48,772 bases of DNA from Crocinitomicaceae bacterium. GTDB taxonomy: Bacteria > Bacteroidota > Bacteroidia > Flavobacteriales_G > Salibacteraceae. A model generated the notes under the pieces. It was not told the origin of the DNA and did not search any database. It saw only the letters and a program-made list of their open reading frames with translations. The DNA lies in contig PAVO01000029.1 in assembly GCA_002713215.1 (NCBI GenBank), positions 1 to 48,772 on the forward strand, read 5' to 3'. Position numbers and translations under genes: made by a program. Below, in pieces: positions 2,757 through 48,772 of the stretch. Within the stretch, counting starts at the first letter, position 1. Every line of letters begins with the position of its first letter.

Positions 2757-3278
2757 ATGAAAATTGAATTTTCTGTTCCACTCGAAAAACACGATTCCAG
2801 TTTGGGTTGGTATTACATTGTGTACGTACCCAAAAATCTAATTAAGGAATTGGGGAAGGAAAAAAACCTGCGGGTTAAGGTAACTTATAACAACAGAGAA
2901 ATAAGCCATGTTTCGGTAAAGAGTAAAGGTGATGTACGCTTTTTGGTAATGAATTCTCAATTGCGTAAAGCCTTGAAATTGGTGGAAGGCGAGTTGGTTC
3001 AAGTGAAGGTAGAATTGGAAACCGGCAAGTATGGAATGCCAATGCCTGAGGAGCTAGCTTTAATGCTGGAACAAGATGAACAAGCAGATGTCCACTTTCA
3101 TAATTTAACTCCCGGAAAGCAACGAAGTTTAATCTTCATTGTGCACAAATTGAAGAACGTAGACAGCCGAATCAAAAAGGCCTTGGGAATAGTTGAACAT
3201 CTCAATGAATTTAACGGCGAGCTTGACTATAGAGCCTTAAACGAAAAGATTAAGGAAGTCAATCAAAGGACGATGTAA
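2757..3278 (+). CDS. DUF1905 / YdeI (OmdA)-family protein
   Basis: This 173-residue cytoplasmic protein has no signal peptide. Residues 1-90 match the DUF1905 beta-barrel pattern (GWYYIVYVPKNL, then a DVRFLVMNSQLRKAL segment). Residues 100-150 match the OmdA/YdeI 'bacteriocin-protection' helical domain, with FHNLTPGKQRSLIFIVHKLK followed by R-I-K-K-A-L. The biochemical function of the family is unknown; YdeI of E. coli is linked to stress and antimicrobial-peptide tolerance. Its stop overlaps the start of the next gene by one base (TAATG), so the two are probably translated together. Confidence 0.75.
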   Translation: MKIEFSVPLEKHDSSLGWYYIVYVPKNLIKELGKEKNLRVKVTYNNREISHVSVKSKGDVRFLVMNSQLRKALKLVEGELVQVKVELETGKYGMPMPEELALMLEQDEQADVHFHNLTPGKQRSLIFIVHKLKNVDSRIKKALGIVEHLNEFNGELDYRALNEKIKEVNQRTM

Positions 3279-37391: not shown

Positions 37392-37886
37392 TTAGTCAAT
37401 GGTAAAAACCTTTTTTTCTCCTTCGAATACAAGTAGAACGGAATCTTTCCAAACCGAGTTGATTTTTAGCTCATCGATCATTTCATTTTCCGATAGGCGA
37501 TAACCTTTACCGTTTACTTTAAGTACAGCAACGTTATTGTTCGTTGAGTGATTTTTGATTCTTCCTTTATATTCGACGGTAGGCCAAACTATTTTTTTTT
37601 GTTGCTTAATTCTTTTGGTTTTTAGAGGTTTCTTTTTGTTAGTCACAGGTGGTCTGGTTTGGCTTAGCGACCAGGAGAACCTGCTCTTCATTCGAAAAGG
37701 ATCTTTGTAGTTAGCCTGAAGCACGTATCGCGAACTGGAGTCTTTTTTAGTGGAAGGAGTAGATTTTGTAGATACGATTGTATTATCAAATTCTTCACTG
37801 GGAGTTACAAAAACCTCTTGTATGATATAGCCCCAGATGGCTATTATGGCAGCGATAAGCAGGATATTTAGGTACTTCTTCTTCAC
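37392..37886 (-). CDS. GspC/PilP-like periplasmic connector
   Basis: This 164-residue protein has one N-terminal membrane helix (~6-24) and a Ser/Thr/Lys-rich linker containing YKDPFRMK. A basic stretch (TNKKKPLKTKRIKQQKK) and a C-terminal beta domain with YKGRIKNHSTNNNVAVLKVNGKGYRLSENEMI follow. The pattern (DPF near the helix, then a small beta-barrel with GxI..... A.... V.G....L..G..) fits the homology region of GspC or PilP, which contact the secretin. It is the last gene of the filament operon, six bases after the lipoprotein. The assignment relies on architecture and position. Confidence 0.65.
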   Translation of the reverse strand: MKKKYLNILLIAAIIAIWGYIIQEVFVTPSEEFDNTIVSTKSTPSTKKDSSSRYVLQANYKDPFRMKSRFSWSLSQTRPPVTNKKKPLKTKRIKQQKKIVWPTVEYKGRIKNHSTNNNVAVLKVNGKGYRLSENEMIDELKINSVWKDSVLLVFEGEKKVFTID

Positions 37887-37892
37887 TTTAGT

Positions 37893-38849
37893 TTATTGAA
37901 TAGTAAAGTTAAATGGGGTAGTGTAACCACTCCAGTTTCCTGCTCGATCCGTGGTTGACATTTTCCAGTAGTAGGTAATGCCCCTGGCTAGGGAATCGGT
38001 GTATGAACCATTACTTACCAAATGATATTTATTTCCGCTTCGAAACAGGCTATCGGTAGATAGAATGAGGCTGTCCCGAACAGGAGATCCATTATCGGAA
38101 GGAGTTGTCCAGGTAAAAGTGGTATTACCTATATTTCTTAATTCACCATTGGTTGGTGTTTTCAACTGAGGCTTACCGGGAACCTGATCGTCGAAGTACA
38201 TAAAACGGGTGGAATAATTTGTTTTGGAATTATCATTTTCGGCGTTAATGCCCCAGGTATAAAATCCATTTTCCAATGCTTTGGTAAGTGTAAGGGAAGT
38301 TTTATCGGTATTTATTTTAGAAGTAAAAAGTTCACCGTTTTCAAAATCGACTCCCTTTACAATTTTGTAGTTGTATTCGCTGGCAATGGGTAGCCCTTCC
38401 CATGAAAATTGGGGTTTAGATACATTGGTATAAAAACTATCACCCGGGGTGCTTAAAACTAGTTGAAACCCGGATAAATCACTGGTGCTATCAATGAATA
38501 TTTTGTAGGTGGAATAACCCGTGTTAGAACCTTCATTTTCCCCACGTATTTGCCATTCGTAAATTCCGGGATTTAGGTTGAATGAGATCGTGGTTTTGCT
38601 TGCCATGGAGTCGATAAGAAGCAACTGGATGGAGTCGAAGCTGGGAGTAGCTAGCCGAAATCGGTAGTTCGTGGCATCTTCTACCTCCTCCCAAATAAAA
38701 TTTATGGTTTGAGCTTTAAGCGAAACACCATTGCCCGGAGAAAGTAATACAACCTTTTCGTCGGCTATGTCTTTAACAAATAAATCTTTTTCGCATGCTC
38801 CTATGAGCATACAAACCAATAAAATGGGAATTAGAAAATGAATTTTCAT
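37893..38849 (-). CDS. Filament-operon lipoprotein with three fibronectin-III-like domains
   Basis: The 318-residue lipoprotein has lipobox MLIGAC (Cys19). Three repeats of about 100 residues follow, each of FN3 type: SLKAQTINFIWEEVEDATNYRFRL, VSKPQFSWEGLPIASEYNYKIV and IGNTTFTWTTPSDNGSPVRDSLIL. Each ends in a Y-x-W-x-(I/M)-x-(A/T) strand. It has no counterpart in standard T2SS or T4P operons. Its place between the GspM-like and GspC-like genes suggests an outer-membrane accessory, perhaps acting as a secretin pilotin or filament-tip/substrate receptor. Gaps of ten and six bases link it to its neighbours. Confidence 0.7.
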   Translation of the reverse strand: MKIHFLIPILLVCMLIGACEKDLFVKDIADEKVVLLSPGNGVSLKAQTINFIWEEVEDATNYRFRLATPSFDSIQLLLIDSMASKTTISFNLNPGIYEWQIRGENEGSNTGYSTYKIFIDSTSDLSGFQLVLSTPGDSFYTNVSKPQFSWEGLPIASEYNYKIVKGVDFENGELFTSKINTDKTSLTLTKALENGFYTWGINAENDNSKTNYSTRFMYFDDQVPGKPQLKTPTNGELRNIGNTTFTWTTPSDNGSPVRDSLILSTDSLFRSGNKYHLVSNGSYTDSLARGITYYWKMSTTDRAGNWSGYTTPFNFTIQ

Positions 38850-38859
38850 AACGGTGCTT

Positions 38860-39366
38860 TTAAATCAGTTTTTGAACATAGATTTTCATAAACAGTTCAT
38901 TCTTCTTTTTTCTTTTGTTTTTTTCTACATATAAGCTGGCACTAGCAATGTTGAGGTGCCGGTAATCTTGTTCGAGTTCATTTAATGTACGCAACAGGCT
39001 AAAAAATTCACCCTGAAGAACAATGGGTTGAATCTGAACCTCCAATTCCTGACTTTTAACCTTTTGGAGTTCCGAAAACTGGTGAATTTGAGCTGATTTT
39101 TTATCCAGTGTTTTGGTAATAATAGCCAATACCTCGTGTTGAAAATCGAGCGAGTCCATGGACCGGTTTATCGTTGTTAAGTCAATATCGTTGAAGCTCG
39201 AATTGAGTTTGTCTTGTTCGAATTGGATCAATTCGGTTCGGATTTCGTTTACTTCTGAATTCAATTCCAGGGTGTTGGACCAGGTAAACTGGTAAATTAC
39301 TATCCATAGCAGCAGCAATCCTGTGCCATAGAGTAGTAATTTTGGATATTTGATTCGTTTACTCAT
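38860..39366 (-). CDS. GspM/PilO-like inner-membrane alignment protein
   Basis: This is a 168-residue bitopic protein with a short basic start (MSKRIKYPK), a membrane helix (~9-27), a coiled coil (~32-100) and a C-terminal ferredoxin-like segment with LQGEFFSLLRTLNELEQDYRHLNIASASL. That last motif is characteristic of PilO/GspM-type proteins, which pair with GspL/PilN. It overlaps the GspL-like gene by eight bases, supporting joint expression and assembly. Confidence 0.75.
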   Translation of the reverse strand: MSKRIKYPKLLLYGTGLLLLWIVIYQFTWSNTLELNSEVNEIRTELIQFEQDKLNSSFNDIDLTTINRSMDSLDFQHEVLAIITKTLDKKSAQIHQFSELQKVKSQELEVQIQPIVLQGEFFSLLRTLNELEQDYRHLNIASASLYVEKNKRKKKNELFMKIYVQKLI

Positions 39367-40558
39367 TCAGTGCAATCAGTAGTTTAAAATCGTATCCGCC
39401 TAATTTTTGGTTCCGTGAGAATTGAGTCATTTTTACACTCTTCAAGAGGTCTAGTTCATTGAGGTATTGAGTAAATTTTTTAAACCCGTCGCTGTGCTTG
39501 GCCAGCCCTGTTATTTGCATTGAGTTTTTATCAAACTCGATGGATTTTTTAGCCTGATTAGAATTCTTTTCCGGATATACCACAACCGAGGTAAACTGAA
39601 TATCGGAAGTCGCTCTGGAGGCAATTTGATCGATCAATTCCGAGTGGTGGGTTTGTTCCTTAAAATTTAGTTTGTCGAAGAGTTCTTTCCGCTCTTTAAA
39701 CTGATTTTGTTTCTCTTGCAATTCCCTCATTTCCTTTTCTACCGAGAGCTTTTTTATGGATTCCTGATTCAGGGTTTTATTCAGTGATGAGAAACAAACG
39801 AAATTGACCAATACCATTAACAGGGTGAGTACAATGGCAGCAACACCTCCTTTTTTCAATAGATTATTTTCTATGCTTGTGCTGGTGTTTTTTAAAGTCG
39901 TTTCTACTTCAGAAGAAAGGGAGGGGCCTATCCCCATTAGCGAATAATACCCAGCCAGTTGGAGTAGGGCAGATTCTGCCGGCAATGATTCTGAACCCAC
40001 GGTTACCTGTTGGCTTGGCTCTTCTTTTGATTCAGTAATCTGCACCAGCTCTCTGTTTTCCAATCGAATATTGTAGCAGGAAAGCTGAACATTCTTTTCA
40101 AATAACTTTATAAAGGAACCCACACCCAGGTTAAGAGACACCATTCGTTGTATCAGACTTGATTCGGGGTTTAAAATTTCGCTTAGTTGGCTTTTTCGAA
40201 CAATAGAAACCAAATACCCTTGAGGGATTTGATCGGCCTGATAATAAAAGTCATCGACGCTAATTTGGGGAAAAGCTTCCTTAATCAGAGCTATACCGGC
40301 TTTTTCACTTGATATAATTTTACGAAGAACTCCCTTGCCCGTTATGGTTATAGAAAGGTCAGTTTTTCCCGATTGCAGGGAATCCATATTAGCCAGGTTA
40401 GAATCGGTAATGAGTTCTCCATTGGGAATTACCTCATCACCTTTTCTCACAAAGTTCATACACTTGAATTGTATACCCTTGGGCGAAAAATGCACCTCCA
40501 GAGAAGTTACTTCCTTCAATGCCACAATCGATTTTATCAAGGCGAGGGGTGAGCGCAT
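39359..40558 (-). CDS. GspL / PilM-PilN-like fusion protein
   Basis: This is a 399-residue protein. Residues ~1-220 are a cytoplasmic domain of the actin-like type expected for GspL or PilM, though degenerate. A single membrane helix lies at about 236-256. A coiled coil (~262-300) and a PilN-like domain follow (SELIDQIASRATSDIQFTSVVVYPEKN, LAKHSDGFKKFTQYLNELDLLKSVKMTQF). The single-chain arrangement is that of GspL and links the assembly ATPase to the periplasmic ring. It overlaps the secretin gene by one base (TAATG) and the GspM-like gene by eight. Confidence 0.8.
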   Translation of the reverse strand: MRSPLALIKSIVALKEVTSLEVHFSPKGIQFKCMNFVRKGDEVIPNGELITDSNLANMDSLQSGKTDLSITITGKGVLRKIISSEKAGIALIKEAFPQISVDDFYYQADQIPQGYLVSIVRKSQLSEILNPESSLIQRMVSLNLGVGSFIKLFEKNVQLSCYNIRLENRELVQITESKEEPSQQVTVGSESLPAESALLQLAGYYSLMGIGPSLSSEVETTLKNTSTSIENNLLKKGGVAAIVLTLLMVLVNFVCFSSLNKTLNQESIKKLSVEKEMRELQEKQNQFKERKELFDKLNFKEQTHHSELIDQIASRATSDIQFTSVVVYPEKNSNQAKKSIEFDKNSMQITGLAKHSDGFKKFTQYLNELDLLKSVKMTQFSRNQKLGGYDFKLLIALNE

Positions 40559-42459
40559 TAGTAGATAATAGTTGGAATTATAAATATTTCAAGTTTGGTT
40601 TTGGACTTCGACTTTTCCCGTCTTCCGAAAATCCATTTTATAATGGGTATTCTGGATATAAGCGGAAGTCCTTTGCCAGACTCTGATGTAGTTTTTTCTT
40701 CTAGCCCACCCAGCAGAATCATTTCCTCGTTTTTTACCCGGATTACCGAATTAAAACTTCGCGTTACATTTCCAGGAGGGGCACCCGGTTCTATTTTGGC
40801 CGTAAAATCGGATTGTGAAACTTCAATTTCAAGCGTTACCTGCTCGTCTCCTGACACAATGGGTTTTATGGTAATGGATAGATCAGCACTTACCGATTTA
40901 TAGGTCCGGGTTTGAATGTTTTGTGGGTTCTGCGTACCAATCACGCTGTTCGATGTTTCCAGGTAATACTCGGTAGTACCAATGGTGGTATTGGCCTCGT
41001 GTCCGTTTATGGTTGCCAGGCGTGGAGTGGATTTGGTTTTGAGCAATCCGTTTTGTTCCAAAGCCTGTATACTGAGGTAAAATTCTGAATTCACCTTACC
41101 CAGATTGAGCAATCCGGCTCCGCTGAATCCTCCAAAAATGTCCATGAGTTTATTAGGATCAAGGTTTACATTTAATTCAGGCAATACGTTTCCTGTTCCG
41201 GGATTCGGGTTCTCTCCAAATCCAGCCGAAATTCCAGTGCTTATGCCCTTATTTTTATTGACATTCACTATTAGTACATCAATCAATACCACTGGAACAA
41301 TCTTGTCAATGGATTTCAAAAATTCCTGAACTTCAACTACGTTAGGGTAGGAGCCTGTAAGTACCAGAGAGTTTAATTCAACAAATTCTTTAATTTCCAG
41401 CCCTTTTTTCATTTCGGCTGGAATAATATCCATGACCGATTCTATGGTTCGGTTTTGCATTTGAAAAAGTTGGGTGGTTCTTAATCGCTCCAGTTGCCTT
41501 TTACCAATTAGGTACACGTTGTTTTCAAACTTGTGGGTGTAGTCTGTTCCATTGAGTAGATAGGTCATAAATTCCTCATACTTGGCATTTTCGACATAGA
41601 GTGTGGCGTTACCTGTAGGATCATTAAACAGGAAATAGTTTTTCTCCAACTTCTCAGAAACCGCTACAATGATGTCCTTTATGGGTACATTGTTGGCATC
41701 GACCGTTATTATTCCATCCTTAATTTCAATTTTTAAACCCTGTGGATCAGGAGTAATCCCATTTTTGCCGGACTGGTTATTTCGCCTTGCATTGTTCTTA
41801 TTGACTACTTTGTTTTCTTCGGGTTTGGAAATAATAAAAAAGTTGTCGGTCGATTTTTTAGTCTCCAGGCCATTGGCAAAAGCCAGCTTATCCAGGGTGT
41901 TTTTAAAAGGTCTTTTTTGAATGTAAGCACTCACCACCATATCATCCAGTCCGGGAGACAGGATGACGTTAATGCCGGAGACTTCAGTTATTTCTTTTAC
42001 CACACGGTGCAGCGAATCTTTTTTAAGGTCAACTGACAGAAACTGATTGGCTTGGTTAAACTTGATATTCAATTTACGGGCAACAACAGGTTTGGGAATT
42101 TCAATCGGTTTCTCATATTTCATAAAGGAAATGATGCTTCCAACAATTTCCATATCCAAATCATATTCCTTGCAGACATAAACAAATACGTCAATTACTT
42201 TGGCGTCGGAAAAATCGTTGGTTACCGGTTGGTTTATGTTGCCGCTAACACTCACGTTTAGTTTATGTGCCTGAGCTATGGCGGTTAAAAATTCGTTTAG
42301 CGATAAATCGCTTACTGATATTTCAACTTCTTCGAGAAGACCTGGTTCCACCTTGGATAAGGTATCCAATTGGGTTCGTATGGCGTCGAATCGATCTGTT
42401 TTTTGCGCTACAAGAGCAGTGCTGCCGACCAATAATAATATGATGAATATCTGTCGCAT
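40558..42459 (-). CDS. gspD: Type IV filament / type II secretion secretin
   Basis: This 633-residue outer-membrane protein has a signal peptide (to VAQ, ~19) and an STN-like domain (SVSDLSLNEFLTAIAQAHKLNVSVSG). Two or three N-domains follow, one with AYIQKRPFKNTLDKLAFANGLE. The secretin core (~390-633) has VPVVLIDVLIVNVNKNKG, GLLKTKSTPRLATINGHEA, VIRVKNEEMILLGGLEE and LPLISRIPIIKWIFGRREK. There is no AMIN domain, which argues slightly against PilQ. It forms the outer-membrane ring through which a filament or substrate passes. It abuts gspE with no gap. Whether the system is T2SS or T4P cannot be settled from this gene alone. Confidence 0.9.
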   Translation of the reverse strand: MRQIFIILLLVGSTALVAQKTDRFDAIRTQLDTLSKVEPGLLEEVEISVSDLSLNEFLTAIAQAHKLNVSVSGNINQPVTNDFSDAKVIDVFVYVCKEYDLDMEIVGSIISFMKYEKPIEIPKPVVARKLNIKFNQANQFLSVDLKKDSLHRVVKEITEVSGINVILSPGLDDMVVSAYIQKRPFKNTLDKLAFANGLETKKSTDNFFIISKPEENKVVNKNNARRNNQSGKNGITPDPQGLKIEIKDGIITVDANNVPIKDIIVAVSEKLEKNYFLFNDPTGNATLYVENAKYEEFMTYLLNGTDYTHKFENNVYLIGKRQLERLRTTQLFQMQNRTIESVMDIIPAEMKKGLEIKEFVELNSLVLTGSYPNVVEVQEFLKSIDKIVPVVLIDVLIVNVNKNKGISTGISAGFGENPNPGTGNVLPELNVNLDPNKLMDIFGGFSGAGLLNLGKVNSEFYLSIQALEQNGLLKTKSTPRLATINGHEANTTIGTTEYYLETSNSVIGTQNPQNIQTRTYKSVSADLSITIKPIVSGDEQVTLEIEVSQSDFTAKIEPGAPPGNVTRSFNSVIRVKNEEMILLGGLEEKTTSESGKGLPLISRIPIIKWIFGRREKSKSKTKLEIFIIPTIIY

Positions 42460-43881
42460 TTAGTTCAATAAAAGGGGATAAACTTCCTCCAAACTAGTTT
42501 CTCCGGTTATTAGTAATTCAAAAGCCCTTTCGGGAATTCTTTTGATGTTGAGTTCTTTAAAATATTCATCGACCACACTCCGGTTTTCTTTAATCAATTC
42601 ACGTCCGGTTTCGTTGATCGGAATTACTTCGTACACAGCTACCCGTCCCTTGTATCCGGTATAATGGCATTGGTCGCAGCCCCGGGGTTCCTGTACTTCA
42701 ATAGTGCTTTCCCTGGTCCAGTTTCCTGGGACCTCTGTTGCAGCAATTTGGTTCAATTGTTTGCACGAAGTACATAACTTACGAACCAGGCGCTGGGCTA
42801 TGCTAGCACTAATGGTACTGGATAACAAGAAGGGGGGAATGCCCATATCAATCAACCTGGAAATGGTTCCCCAGGCTGAATTGGTATGGATAGTGGATAA
42901 AACCAAATGGCCCGTGAGCGATGCCCGAATGGCCATGTTGGCGGTTTCTACGTCCCGAATTTCCCCCAGCATGATCACATCTGGATCTTGCCGGAGGAAG
43001 GAACGCAAAGCACTGCCGAAGGTGAGACCAATTGATTCTTTTACCTGTACCTGGTTAATTCCGGGCAGGGTATATTCAATTGGATCTTCCACCGTTAATA
43101 TGTTTGTTTTTTCCTTGTTAAGCATTTTTAGTGTGGCGTAGAGGGTAGTTGTTTTTCCTGACCCTGTTGGTCCACTAATGAGCACAATGCCCGATGGTTT
43201 TTTAACCGAATCGAGGTAGTACTTCAGCTCCAGTTGACTCAACCCCAATTGTTCGATGTGGATGTGCGATGCGTCGTTGTTGAGCAGTCTCATCACTATT
43301 TTTTCTCCAAACAGGGTGGGCAATACGGATACCCGAATATCGATGTTGATTTGATCGTGGCTAAAAATGATTCGGCCATCCTGAGGCAGTCTTTTTTCTG
43401 CAATATCGAGGTTGGCTTTAATTTTAATTTTGTTGACAAAGGAAGGGTAGAGCTCTGTGGGTATAGCGTATTTCTCCAGCAAATGTCCATCGATCCGGTA
43501 ACGGACGCGACAATGTTTTTCGTAGACTTCGATATGAATATCGGAACTGTCGTGGTGTTTGGCTTCGGCGATGAGGTCATCGAGGAAGGTTTCGCTGTTT
43601 CGTAAATCGACCTGCGATTTCTGCTTTTCGTTTTGGCGGTAATATTTAGCCAAAAGCTTGCTAATTATCGCTTCTTCAATTGGCTCTATTTCAATGGTAA
43701 GGCCTGTTAGTATTTCTATTTCGTCTATTGAGTCGAAACTGCTTTGAAGTCCATAACACTTAACGGAATTGTCATTGGAATGAAAGGGAACAATGGAATA
43801 CTCCTGTGCAAAGGAAGCCGTTATCAATTGAATGGTCTCCCTGGGAATGTTCTCTTCTATTATGTCTATACCATTAATCAT
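42460..43881 (-). CDS. gspE: GspE/PilB-type assembly ATPase
   Basis: The 473-residue cytoplasmic ATPase has a short N1E-like domain and then SSDIHIEVYEKHCRVRYRIDG. Walker A GPTGSGKTTT is at ~235-243. The Asp box (TVEDPIEYTLPGINQVQV) and Walker B (RQDPDVIMLGEIRD, ~297) follow, with the His box GHLVLSTIHTNSAW. The zinc-binding tetracysteine is CTSC (~370) and CDQC (~403). These mark a GspE/PilB extension ATPase rather than a PilT retraction ATPase. It overlaps the prepilin-peptidase gene by four bases and abuts the secretin gene. It should drive pilin addition in the operon's filament. Confidence 0.93.
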   Translation of the reverse strand: MINGIDIIEENIPRETIQLITASFAQEYSIVPFHSNDNSVKCYGLQSSFDSIDEIEILTGLTIEIEPIEEAIISKLLAKYYRQNEKQKSQVDLRNSETFLDDLIAEAKHHDSSDIHIEVYEKHCRVRYRIDGHLLEKYAIPTELYPSFVNKIKIKANLDIAEKRLPQDGRIIFSHDQINIDIRVSVLPTLFGEKIVMRLLNNDASHIHIEQLGLSQLELKYYLDSVKKPSGIVLISGPTGSGKTTTLYATLKMLNKEKTNILTVEDPIEYTLPGINQVQVKESIGLTFGSALRSFLRQDPDVIMLGEIRDVETANMAIRASLTGHLVLSTIHTNSAWGTISRLIDMGIPPFLLSSTISASIAQRLVRKLCTSCKQLNQIAATEVPGNWTRESTIEVQEPRGCDQCHYTGYKGRVAVYEVIPINETGRELIKENRSVVDEYFKELNIKRIPERAFELLITGETSLEEVYPLLLN

Positions 43882-44381
43882 AGTATCAGAGCCAATTGGT
43901 TTATTTCAGTTAGCAACGAAATGGGGTGGAAGTAGTTTAACACCAGGTACCCTATAAGAACCAGGCTTTGGTAGCCGGCCAAAGGAACCGTATTGCTTCG
44001 TTTGATCAATTGAACCAGCAGGTGTAAGATTCCGGCTCCAATAAATGATATGGAAAGGAAAATCAGGTATTCCAGGGTGCTAAACAGGGGAGTGATCGCA
44101 ACCAGAAAAAGAAGATCACCCATTCCCAAGGATTTATTAATTGGAGTTCGTGTTTTTAGCCAATGCAATCCAACCACAGAAGTGAGTAGTAACACGCTAA
44201 TAATCAAAGACCAGGGAATGGATTCCAGGAAATCGAAGGATTGAAACCTTAGGTAACTGTAGCCCATAGAGAACATTCCCAGCAGTGGAAAAAGCCACCA
44301 TTGAATGCCCCTGTATTTTAGGTCTTCATAGAACATAAAAAACAGGATTCCCACACCGAGTAGAAGTGATCCCTCCAACAT
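43878..44381 (-). CDS. Prepilin peptidase, A24 type lacking the methylase domain
   Basis: This 167-residue polytopic membrane protein has about five hydrophobic helices. The two catalytic aspartates are visible: Asp20 (FYEDLKYRGI) and Asp89 in the GxGD motif (SLGMGDLLF). Full-length PilD/GspO proteins are about 280 residues, with an N-terminal cysteine-rich methyltransferase part that is absent here, so it may cleave but not N-methylate pilin. It is three bases after the pilin gene and overlaps gspE by four. Confidence 0.85.
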   Translation of the reverse strand: MLEGSLLLGVGILFFMFYEDLKYRGIQWWLFPLLGMFSMGYSYLRFQSFDFLESIPWSLIISVLLLTSVVGLHWLKTRTPINKSLGMGDLLFLVAITPLFSTLEYLIFLSISFIGAGILHLLVQLIKRSNTVPLAGYQSLVLIGYLVLNYFHPISLLTEINQLALIL

Positions 44382-44384
44382 GGA

Positions 44385-44798
44385 TCAGTCTTTTATTACT
44401 TCTTTAAGCTGAAGGTCCTGATCGACTTCCCAAACATTATACTGACCATCTCCGTCAAAATCTACTACTGCTGTAGCTCGGGCCAGGTAACCAGTATTGC
44501 TGTGTTCTACCACTTCAATCTGGTAATTGGCCTGTCCACCGTTGGTTACCAAGTTCGAATGCTCAAAACCCAAATCGTTAAAGTCGTTCGAATACTTAGA
44601 GTGTACATAGAAGTAGGTTTTCTCCAGCGTATGAATGTGTTTTAGCTGAAGTTTGGCTTCCTGGGCCTTGGCTTCAGCAATTTTGGGCATTAAGTTGGGC
44701 AATGCCACTAAAATTAAAATACCAATGATGGCCAGAACGATTAATAGTTCGGTTAGCGAAAAGGCATGAATCCTCCTCGAGTTAATTCTTGATTTCAT
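44385..44798 (-). CDS. Type IV pilin-like major subunit
   Basis: This 137-residue protein has a basic 12-residue leader followed by FSLTELLIVLAIIGILILVALPN, the class III signal. Mature Glu5 (Glu17 of the precursor) is present. The residue before the cleavage site is Ala12, not the usual Gly. After the hydrophobic helix comes a coiled region (EAKAQEAKLQLKHIHTLEKTYFYVHSKYS) and a beta domain carrying D113-x-D115-x-D117-G, a possible calcium loop. It is the only pilin in the operon and the first gene, preceded by two inverted repeats. It probably forms the filament or pseudopilus shaft. Confidence 0.9.
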   Translation of the reverse strand: MKSRINSRRIHAFSLTELLIVLAIIGILILVALPNLMPKIAEAKAQEAKLQLKHIHTLEKTYFYVHSKYSNDFNDLGFEHSNLVTNGGQANYQIEVVEHSNTGYLARATAVVDFDGDGQYNVWEVDQDLQLKEVIKD

Positions 44799-47831: not shown

Positions 47832-48772
47832 TTAATTAGTAATCTTTAAAGTATCTCCAGCATAAATATCATTGGAAGACAACTTATTTTCGGCTTTTAT
47901 TGCCTTTACAGATGTTTGATACCTTTTCGCTATCGACCACAATGTGTCACCAGATTTAATCTCATATGTTGAAGTGCTTTTCGCTGCAGTACCTTTAACT
48001 CCCGTCCCTGGTCCTGTGTCTTTAGGAATAGTTTTCGTTGAGGGTATTGGACTTACAAGTTTGTTCCCTGTGAAACTATATTTTAACAGCTTAGCTCCTG
48101 GAGTAACAACATATCCATCGACACCTAAACTCCATGAAACACCTCTATCACCAACTGGCATTACAGCAGGTGCAGCCGGAGTCGAAGCAGTAGCCTTCAT
48201 AGGAGGGCTGTATTCTTTCCCTGAGAATAATTCATCATCATACACAGTATTTCCAAAACTTTTAGCGTTTACAGTAGATGCAGCATGTGTATGTCCCCAT
48301 GCTTCTAAATTGGTTCCAGAAGGTAAATTTATTGATCCTATATTAACACCACTTCCACTTCCACTTCCCTTAACAGGAATTGTGTAAGAATAATGTTTCA
48401 CTCCATTCTTGTCAACAACAGAATATATCTTTATGCCATATTCGAGGTTATCTCTTATGGAATTGTCATTAAAAAGTACCGCAAAATCTTCAAAGGCTTT
48501 ATTGGGATTGGAAAATAGTACTCCGGGTTGTAACCCTTCCAATTCAATTGCATCTATAACCCTATTACCACTGAACGCATAAGGGCTGTAATACGGATAA
48601 TCTTTGTAAATTGGATCAATAGCTAAAAACCTTGCAATTTTCGGGTCATACATTCTGTGTTTGTAGTTAACCGAGTTTCCAGTTCCTTTAACTTCGTCGT
48701 CTTGTTCTTGTCCTTGGAAGCCATATCGATATTCTCCAGGGTTTGCGGATCTTCCGGGTAATTTCATACCGA
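47832..48772 (-). CDS. RHS-repeat effector C-terminus with DUF4329 and LysM (5' truncated by window)
   Basis: The visible 313 or so codons run off the window edge; no stop precedes the first Met at 48767, so the gene continues upstream. The RHS-associated core is clear (EYRYGFQGQEQDDE, KHRMYDPKIARFLAIDPIYKDYPYYSPYAFSGNRVIDAIELEG). The variable C-terminus (~80-235) matches DUF4329, with FEDFAVLFNDNSIRDNLEYG, EAWGHTHAASTVN and FSGKEYSPP. The motif ends GVDGYVVTPGAKLLKY. The His-x-His and later Asp suggest a JAB-like metallopeptidase fold. A Thr/Pro linker and a LysM domain (YEIKSGDTLWSIAKRYQTSV) end the protein. It is likely a contact-dependent toxin targeting the cell envelope. The immunity gene follows. 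Confidence 0.85.
   Translation of the reverse strand, partial: GMKLPGRSANPGEYRYGFQGQEQDDEVKGTGNSVNYKHRMYDPKIARFLAIDPIYKDYPYYSPYAFSGNRVIDAIELEGLQPGVLFSNPNKAFEDFAVLFNDNSIRDNLEYGIKIYSVVDKNGVKHYSYTIPVKGSGSGSGVNIGSINLPSGTNLEAWGHTHAASTVNAKSFGNTVYDDELFSGKEYSPPMKATASTPAAPAVMPVGDRGVSWSLGVDGYVVTPGAKLLKYSFTGNKLVSPIPSTKTIPKDTGPGTGVKGTAAKSTSTYEIKSGDTLWSIAKRYQTSVKAIKAENKLSSNDIYAGDTLKITN

What the first reader, a model, noticed from the sequence alone, without database searches (positions are those of the whole stretch)
37392..44798. Compact type IV filament operon with no GspF/PilC platform and a single pilin
Eight tightly packed or overlapping genes encode pilin, prepilin peptidase, GspE-type ATPase, secretin, GspL-like, GspM-like, an FN3 lipoprotein and a GspC-like protein. 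The inner-membrane platform (GspF/PilC), PilT and all minor pseudopilins are absent from the operon. Characterised T2SS and T4P machines need a platform protein. Either it is encoded elsewhere, or a small component here replaces it. Such filament systems are poorly described in Bacteroidota, where T9SS dominates.
Basis: partly seen in the sequence, partly recalled or inferred. Interest (0 to 1): 0.78.

Follow-up and report, generated by a model that had tools for sequence, protein, structure and literature searches.

The report
Bacteroidota type II-like secretion operon, split
This is one half of a known but little-studied Bacteroidota secretion machine whose supposedly missing platform gene lies in a second half elsewhere in the same genome, and across relatives the machine tends to sit beside genes for giant surface-type proteins that it may export.

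Summary
The eight-gene operon is real. The idea that it works without a GspF/PilC platform is wrong: the same genome encodes one GspF on contig C16, beside two minor pilins (I, J), a beta-solenoid protein (K) and a MORN-repeat protein. Of 80 genomes (own included), 21 have the secretin and 20 of those have this GspF, within 8 kb of the secretin in 16. The usual set is 13 genes in two movable blocks, G-O-E-D-L-M-FN3 lipoprotein-C and MORN-K-I-J-F; the window holds the first, C16 the second. This is the 'Bacteroidetes T2SS' of Cytophaga hutchinsonii (PMC5553014), which branches apart from true T2SS (PMC6668835), so a new member of a known kind. I add two conserved parts left unnamed there (FN3 lipoprotein, MORN), the fold of K, and linkage to giant RHS-like proteins: 22 of 51 secretin-positive genomes have one within 30 kb of the secretin, against about 1.4 expected, partly circular for two of them. 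One such cluster was noted before in F. psychrophilum (PMC5808330). That these proteins are cargo is a hypothesis.

The parts
44385..44798 (-). G: major (pseudo)pilin, 137 aa, N-methyl prepilin signal, C-terminal DxDGDG motif
   Evidence: Pfam N_methyl 3.3e-6; NCBIfam Myxococcus PilA 2.4e-16 and GspG 4.3e-8, both under cut-off; DxDGDG in 61 of 92 pilins
43878..44381 (-). O: short prepilin peptidase, 167 aa, with GxGD motif
   Evidence: Pfam Peptidase_A24 0.011, under cut-off; GxGD in 76 of 91 homologues; D.[KR].[RK] plus G.GD in 65 of 91
42460..43881 (-). E: assembly ATPase, 473 aa
   Evidence: Pfam T2SSE 5e-128, MshEN 3.6e-6; PilB 503 and GspE 497 bits, both under cut-off
40558..42459 (-). 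D: secretin, 633 aa
   Evidence: Pfam Secretin 2.2e-34, STN 2.3e-8; PilQ 123, GspD 121.5 and MshL 112 bits, all under cut-off
39359..40558 (-). L: GspL-like inner-membrane protein, actin-like cytoplasmic part plus TM plus PilN-like periplasmic part
   Evidence: PilN weakly in 12 of 19 homologues; AlphaFold2 model pLDDT 80.6, pTM 0.55; Foldseek: EpsL cytoplasmic 3.1e-5, PulL 4.1e-5, EpsL periplasmic 1.5e-3
38860..39366 (-). M: GspM/PilO-like small inner-membrane protein, 168 aa (by position and size)
   Evidence: NCBIfam GspM 0.025 only; hhalign to E. coli GspM not significant
37893..38849 (-). FN3-type repeat lipoprotein, 318 aa, invariant lipobox Cys19
   Evidence: Cys invariant in 20 of 20 aligned homologues; present in 81 of 81 loci that have C; the FN3 type is read by eye, Pfam gives Big_13 1.2e-5
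37392..37886 (-). C: GspC/PilP-like protein, 164 aa
   Evidence: T2SSC in 3 of 23 homologues, best 5.3e-5
47832..48770 (-). C-terminal part of an RHS-type (RHS_B) protein running off the contig end, with DUF4329 and LysM; possible partner or cargo, not a machine part
   Evidence: LysM 3.4e-17, DUF4329 2.6e-11; clusters with RHS_B neighbours of other loci

Best explanation
The operon is block A (G-O-E-D-L-M-FN3 lipoprotein-C) of a 13-gene, T2SS-like type IV filament machine found across Bacteroidota. Block B (MORN-K-I-J-F) lies at another place in this genome (contig C16). SHOWN: both blocks in one genome, co-occurrence, shared synteny in relatives, one platform gene on host contigs, predicted GspL-type fold of L, predicted beta-solenoid in K. 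INFERRED: peptidase O trims prepilins G, I, J and K. The E ring under platform F, held by L-M-C, extrudes a short G filament topped by I, J and K towards secretin D in the outer membrane, and the FN3 lipoprotein sits on the outer membrane at the secretin. With no PilT-type ATPase found on its contigs, it works like a T2SS piston rather than a retracting pilus, and moves periplasmic proteins to the surface. MORE SPECULATIVE: giant RHS-like proteins, in some loci encoded with an OmpH/Skp-like chaperone and a lipoprotein, are among the cargo.
For: T2SSF on C16 with MORN-K-I-J-F. Composition matches the window, 0.10 versus 0.26-0.33 to the C7 and C4 stretches. 20 of 21 secretin-positive genomes carry GspF and 18 of these 21 carry K. 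63 of 95 distinct secretin loci have A with C plus B in one locus, in several orders. FN3 lipoprotein with C in 81 of 81, MORN with K in 59 of 64. L model matches EpsL/PulL. K model matches ice-binding beta-solenoids (Z about 12) and, lower, the Thermus competence pilin ComZ (Z 10.6 over 215 residues). C. hutchinsonii D, F and G mutants change cellulose-bound outer-membrane proteins and adhesion, not motility (PMC5553014). RHS_A in 41 of 51 secretin-positive versus 32 of 245 negative genomes; 22 of 51 within 30 kb, 1.35 expected.
Against: Function of this operon is untested; secretion is by analogy. In C. hutchinsonii the extracellular protein profile hardly changed (PMC5553014). L, M, C and K show no significant profile match to E. 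coli GspL, M, C, K. Closest relative G004 has block A but neither GspF nor K found, in a draft of about 210 contigs. RHS_A also occurs without the secretin (32 of 245; 8 of 59), and 10 of 51 secretin-positive genomes lack it. The RHS_A profile was itself built from copies next to the machine, three of them from genomes in the sample (G000, G001, G066).
Confidence: 0.68

Rival explanations
1. A platform-less filament machine in which a small operon component replaces GspF.
For: No T2SSF in the operon or contig. Closest relative G004 has block A with no GspF or K found.
Against: GspF is present in this genome and in 20 of 21 secretin-positive genomes, within 8 kb of the secretin in 16 of them. 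No operon gene is extra relative to the joined 13-gene clusters. G004 is a draft of about 210 contigs in which both F and K are missing, which suggests a gap or loss of the block.
Confidence: 0.02
2. A type IV pilus for adhesion or DNA uptake rather than a secretion machine.
For: Among solved structures the ATPase is nearer PilB than GspE (383 versus 342 bits); the platform's best match is full-length PilC (133 bits), while for the single-domain fragments PilC and GspF are close (31.5 versus 27.2 bits). Published trees place the Bacteroidetes system with T4aP (PMC6668835). K resembles, among other solenoids, the competence pilin ComZ.
Against: GspL-type fused L. No PilT found on host contigs. 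C. hutchinsonii mutants keep motility and change surface proteins (PMC5553014). I made no search for DNA-uptake genes.
Confidence: 0.2
3. Block B on C16 is contamination and this organism lacks a platform.
For: Contamination estimate 4.39%; contigs C7 and C4 look foreign.
Against: C16 matches the window in composition (0.10) while the foreign-looking stretches differ by 0.26-0.33. Own GspF falls among Bacteroidota GspF in the tree. Single-contig genome G011 has the same split, about 124 kb apart.
Confidence: 0.02
4. The RHS linkage reflects shared hot spots for rearrangement in large genomes, not cargo.
For: RHS_A occurs without the secretin. RHS_A copies are many in G002, G013 and G041. Secretin-positive genomes are on the whole larger. 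The profile came from linked copies.
Against: Hits fall off with distance: 23 within 30 kb, 2 at 30-60 kb, 2 at 60-120 kb, 4 beyond (short contigs limit this). The association holds at 3-4.6 Mb genome size, 12 of 14 versus 5 of 24. OmpH, lipoprotein and RHS_A stand together in that order in 8 loci.
Confidence: 0.4

Closest known systems
Putative T2SS of Cytophaga hutchinsonii, chu_3191-chu_3202, and its counterparts in F. johnsoniae and Pedobacter heparinus (PMC5553014; abstract and passages read)
   Same: Same components: D, E, F, G, O, three L/M/C candidates and minor pseudopilins. The locus numbers in its Table 2 fit the orders that I see in Pedobacter (G to F, 13 genes) and Flavobacterium loci.
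   Different: Here blocks A and B are apart. The FN3 lipoprotein and MORN genes fall on numbers that the table leaves out; K falls on a number listed as a minor pseudopilin for F. johnsoniae but left out for P. heparinus (by position). My L/M/C labels follow fold and order and need not match theirs. I did not fetch the C. hutchinsonii sequences.
'So-called T2SS of Bacteroidetes' in the type IV filament phylogeny of Denise et al. 2019 (PMC6668835; passages read)
   Same: Branches apart from true T2SS; suggested there as possibly a separately derived secretion system.
   Different: They place it with T4aP using far more references. My small trees only show a separate Bacteroidota clade.
T2SS-like cluster of F. 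psychrophilum CC-ST10 (PMC5808330; passages read)
   Same: T2SS genes with an OmpH-family chaperone and genes with ABC-toxin-type domains in one ~35-kb cluster; its T2S genes too lie in two oppositely transcribed loci.
   Different: One species there; here the linkage is counted across a class.
Proteobacterial T2SS (E. coli Gsp)
   Same: GspL-type fold, GspJ-like minor pilin, no retraction ATPase found.
   Different: Separate clade; no equivalog cut-off reached; no GspH identified; extra FN3 lipoprotein and MORN protein.

Membership tests
Bacteroidetes T2SS-like type IV filament system (C. hutchinsonii type) | G, O, E, D, L, M, C and F with minor pilins in one genome, in the order that the published locus numbers imply for Pedobacter and Flavobacterium | tested here: met
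   the order is compared with the locus numbers in PMC5553014 Table 2; in this genome the two blocks are apart
Bacteroidetes T2SS-like type IV filament system (C. hutchinsonii type) | Direct sequence match to CHU_3191-CHU_3202 | not tested
   C. hutchinsonii was not among the 80 loci kept (capped list)
T2SS | GspE, GspD, GspF and GspG equivalog scores over the curated cut-off | tested here: not met
   GspE 497/630, GspD 121.5/351, GspG 33/89 bits; GspF 217/424
T2SS | ATPase and platform inside the T2SS clade | tested here: not met
   Separate clades in both trees; few references
T2SS | Fused GspL (actin-like cytoplasmic part, TM, periplasmic part) | tested here: met
   Foldseek of a predicted model to EpsL and PulL; the sequence profile match fails
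T2SS | Minor pseudopilins H, I, J, K | tested here: inconclusive
   J matches GspJ 7e-8 over its first 100 residues; I and K by position and signal; K has no match to GspK; H not identified
T4aP | PilB over cut-off | tested here: not met
   503/675 bits
T4aP | PilT retraction ATPase | tested here: not met
   Only one T2SSE gene outside contig C7; the assembly is 98.9% complete, so absence is likely, not certain
T4aP | Separate PilM and PilN | tested here: not met
   L's predicted model carries both parts in one protein

The most novel reading that the evidence does not exclude
The Bacteroidota filament machine is a secretion system of its own descent, with own parts (FN3 lipoprotein, MORN protein, beta-solenoid tip pilin K). 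One of its main jobs is to put giant two-part RHS proteins (RHS_A shell plus RHS_B with variable end), escorted by a Skp-like chaperone, on the cell surface.
Probability: 0.28. Interest if true: 0.75.

Novelty: new member of a known kind. Interest (0 to 1): 0.45.

Why it matters
It removes a claim that would have overturned how type IV filaments are built. In its place it gives a parts list for a machine whose secretin is found in 51 of 296 sampled genomes of the class (four are partial matches) and whose cargo is unknown. If the RHS link is causal, it says what this machine secretes and gives large RHS proteins of Bacteroidota an export route other than T9SS or T6SS. Both claims can be tested by deletion in laboratory strains.

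Tried and rejected
Platform-less machine: rejected. Foreign origin of the C16 module: rejected by composition and tree. The other T4F genes in the assembly (C7, C4) as parts of this machine: rejected. Their composition differs and one C7 ATPase is nearest to Pseudomonas and Variovorax records in the plasmid collection; the phage collection gave weak matches to a second C7 ATPase.

G013 first looked like a split genome, but its two contigs break at the F and G ends, so it may be an intact cluster across a gap; I do not count it as a split. G004 lacks F and K in a draft of about 210 contigs; I treat it as unresolved. My rule for gene order files three scrambled loci (L070, L076, L165) under the plain orders.

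hhalign of L, M, C and K against single E. coli Gsp proteins was not significant; only J matched. That is a weak test, since one side was a single sequence. Pfam and NCBIfam do not name RHS_A: over seven proteins scanned, Pfam gave weak SpvB (0.0042) and DUF6531 (0.0088) in one, PKD in one, a weak carbohydrate-binding domain in one and nothing in four; NCBIfam gave nothing in any. The RHS label rests on YD-like C-termini in some members that I read by eye and on an RHS_B protein next to one of them with DUF6443 and RHS_repeat (L170). The E tree puts one divergent Bacteroidota ATPase (L080) beside the PilT outgroup, perhaps long-branch attraction, and does not resolve T4aP against T2SS.

Literature searches listed no paper that I recognised as treating the RHS linkage across Bacteroidota; the library is open-access only, and two listings were longer than shown. 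I opened six papers, by passages: PMC5553014, PMC6668835, PMC4793230, PMC5808330, PMC5524665, PMC3482391. PMC4793230 says that most T2SS are in one locus (96.5%) and most T4P in several (99%), so a split set alone is not unusual for the superfamily. PMC5524665 reports a partial T2SS and an RHS protein in F. columnare; the passages seen do not link them.
Full report
Observation. The window is G000:C29:1-48772 of a 5.03-Mb, 56-contig assembly (98.92% complete, 4.39% contamination estimate). Eight minus-strand genes at 37392-44798 follow each other with spacings of -8 to +10 bases. Pfam and NCBIfam identify the pilin, ATPase and secretin clearly and the rest weakly. No T2SSF domain, second prepilin signal or second T2SSE ATPase was found on this contig. 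That the organism is a Flavobacteriales-type Bacteroidota is inference: a same-family genome (G013) has a contig of the length of one titled 'uncultured Flavobacteriales bacterium' (L106, 19108 bases).

The platform is elsewhere. The T2SSF search of the own genome finds one protein of 396 aa at C16:24736-25710. It lies in a minus-strand cluster in the order MORN-repeat protein, K (408 aa), I (100 aa), J (143 aa), F. J passes the N_methyl cut-off and I falls below it. C16 and the window share composition (tetranucleotide distance 0.10), while stretches of C7 and C4, some with other pilus genes, lie 0.26-0.33 from both and 0.12-0.16 from each other. I take C7 and C4 as foreign. Outside C7 the genome has one secretin, one T2SSE ATPase and one T2SSF protein, so no PilT was found.

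Co-occurrence. In 80 genomes (own included), 21 have the secretin and 21 have GspF; 20 have both. Exceptions: G004 has the secretin without GspF or K, and G029 has GspF genes without a secretin match. In 16 of the 20, GspF is within 8 kb of the secretin on the same contig (in G038 and G041 as a partial gene at the contig end). It is apart in the window's genome, in G011 (one 5.1-Mb contig, about 124 kb apart) and in G003; in G013 the contigs end at the junction, so nothing follows. K was found in 18 of the 21.

Synteny. Profiles built from the best matches in loci of relatives were run over those loci and over 80 named loci from genome contigs; those 80 are the best of 471 relatives found, a capped list. 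Of 95 distinct secretin loci, 63 hold A (with C) and B in one locus: B before A 29, A before B 22, FN3-C-B before G..M 5, B inverted 4, G..M then inverted FN3-C-B 3; three of these are in truth scrambled. Six have A only, with at least 6 kb free of K, J and F on both sides, 12 are too short to judge and 14 show no C, several on short contigs. FN3 lipoprotein accompanies C in 81 of 81 and MORN accompanies K in 59 of 64. The profiles came partly from the same loci, so the 74 named loci are the fairer test. In other classes of the phylum the K-J-F part, and in several loci the G pilin with F, recur.

Component anatomy. The FN3 lipoprotein has an invariant lipobox cysteine in 20 of 20. The AlphaFold2 model of L (pLDDT 80.6) matches cytoplasmic EpsL (Foldseek E 3.1e-5), PulL (4.1e-5), periplasmic EpsL (1.5e-3) and XcpY (3.5e-3); sequence comparison with E. 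coli GspL fails. K (pLDDT 86.1) is a long N-terminal helix plus beta-solenoid. VIA-align gives ice-binding proteins at Z about 12 and the Thermus competence pilin ComZ at Z 10.6 (3.9 A, 215 residues); 16 of 23 members match Bactofilin, best 2.8e-6. Its N-terminus often reads as a short leader before a hydrophobic helix without E5 (read by eye). J matches GspJ (7e-8). ATPase Walker A is present in 93 of 95.

Placement. NCBIfam scores are below the equivalog cut-offs and near-tied between T4P and T2SS for E (503 versus 497) and D (123 versus 121.5). Maximum-likelihood trees with few references give a Bacteroidota E clade (99.7/100, 26 of 27 sequences) and an F clade including other classes of the phylum (95.7/95, 40 sequences), both outside the T2SS references. 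Denise et al. place the Cytophaga system with T4aP and away from T2SS (PMC6668835).

Known system. Wang et al. 2017 (PMC5553014; abstract and passages) describe such a set in C. hutchinsonii: chu_3195 D, 3196 E, 3197 O, 3198 G, 3199 F, 3200-3201 minor pseudopilins, 3194/3193/3191 as L/M/C candidates. Their Table 2 numbers for P. heparinus (1100 to 1112) fit the 13-gene order in my Pedobacter loci L150, L163 and L167; 1106, 1108 and 1109, where my order has the FN3 lipoprotein, MORN and K, are not listed. For F. johnsoniae, Fjoh_0611, K's position, is listed as a minor pseudopilin. This is inference from position. D, F and G mutants had altered cellulose-bound outer-membrane proteins and adhesion but normal motility.

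A lead on cargo. Single-linkage clustering of neighbours within 6 kb, over 99 loci, put two RHS-type families first: RHS_A in 24 loci and RHS_B in 23, either in 41. OmpH/Skp-like proteins (14 loci) and a small lipoprotein (10 loci) recur; OmpH, lipoprotein and RHS_A stand together in that order in 8 loci. In the window's genome this follows block B on C16: F, a 152-aa protein, a 976-aa protein, OmpH-like, lipoprotein, RHS_A of 1820 aa, the last four ORFs each overlapping the one before as called from the first start codon. The window itself ends in an RHS_B fragment with DUF4329 and LysM; DUF4329 is listed as Tox-JAB-2 by a survey of polymorphic toxins (PMC3482391, passage). A profile of the RHS_A N-terminus (A8) hits 41 of 51 secretin-positive and 32 of 245 negative genomes of one 296-genome class sample (Fisher 5e-21, not corrected for phylogeny; four positives are partial secretin matches). 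In 22 of 51 a hit lies within 30 kb of the secretin; 1.35 expected for an assumed 4.4-Mb genome. Three of the 11 rows of A8 came from genomes in this sample (G000, G001, G066), and G001 and G066 are among the 22; without the three the counts are 38 of 48 and 20 of 48. No secretin place matches the coordinates of the eight named source loci (compared by eye). In the 80-genome sample the counts are 19 of 21 versus 8 of 59, and 12 of 14 versus 5 of 24 for genomes of 3-4.6 Mb. Against: RHS_A without secretin, secretin without RHS_A, many copies in some genomes, and a profile drawn from linked copies. Authors on F. psychrophilum noted T2SS, OmpH and ABC-toxin-type genes together in CC-ST10, and read the chaperone as a sign of dedicated translocation (PMC5808330, passages). 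NCBIfam found no domain in seven RHS_A proteins; that this library includes T9SS sorting-domain models is recalled.

Verdict. The finding is ordinary in its headline claim: the platform exists and the operon is half of a known Bacteroidota machine. What remains of interest is the movable two-block set, the conserved FN3 lipoprotein and MORN parts, the solenoid K and the RHS linkage.

Noticed in passing
G000 contigs C7 and C4 (L015, L016, L017, L018): Other pilus-type ATPase, secretin and pilin genes (type IVb-like by eye) on contigs whose composition differs from the window; probably a foreign megaplasmid or contaminant in the bin.
   Followed up: partly
L223 (NZ_CP091287.1, F. jumunjinense 'plasmid', 11289 bp, linear): By gene size and order it carries D-L-M-FN3-C at one end, an F fragment and an RHS gene in the middle, and G-O-E at the other end, so its ends look continuous: a possible tandem copy or assembly artefact of this machine.
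   Followed up: no
L173 (CP034120.1, titled Glaciecola amylolytica): A record with the name of a gammaproteobacterium (recalled) carries a full Bacteroidota-type cluster that groups with Flavobacteriaceae loci in both trees; possibly mislabelled.
   Followed up: no
G029 (L054, L066, L091, L092): Two GspF loci, one with an in-frame stop in the match, but no secretin match: possibly a decaying or partial system.
   Followed up: no
L217 and many lower-scoring matches: A second GspF type of about 450 aa is common in other classes of the phylum, with an ATPase-type ORF beside it in L217; not analysed.
   Followed up: no
L135, L150, L152, L163, L167, L177, L178 and others: Runs of repetitive secreted-looking proteins, many with 'GNVGIGT', next to the cluster in Pedobacter- and Mucilaginibacter-type loci, 14 loci in all; another cargo candidate.
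   Followed up: no
G064:C160:7630-8817: A second K gene away from the main cluster.
   Followed up: no
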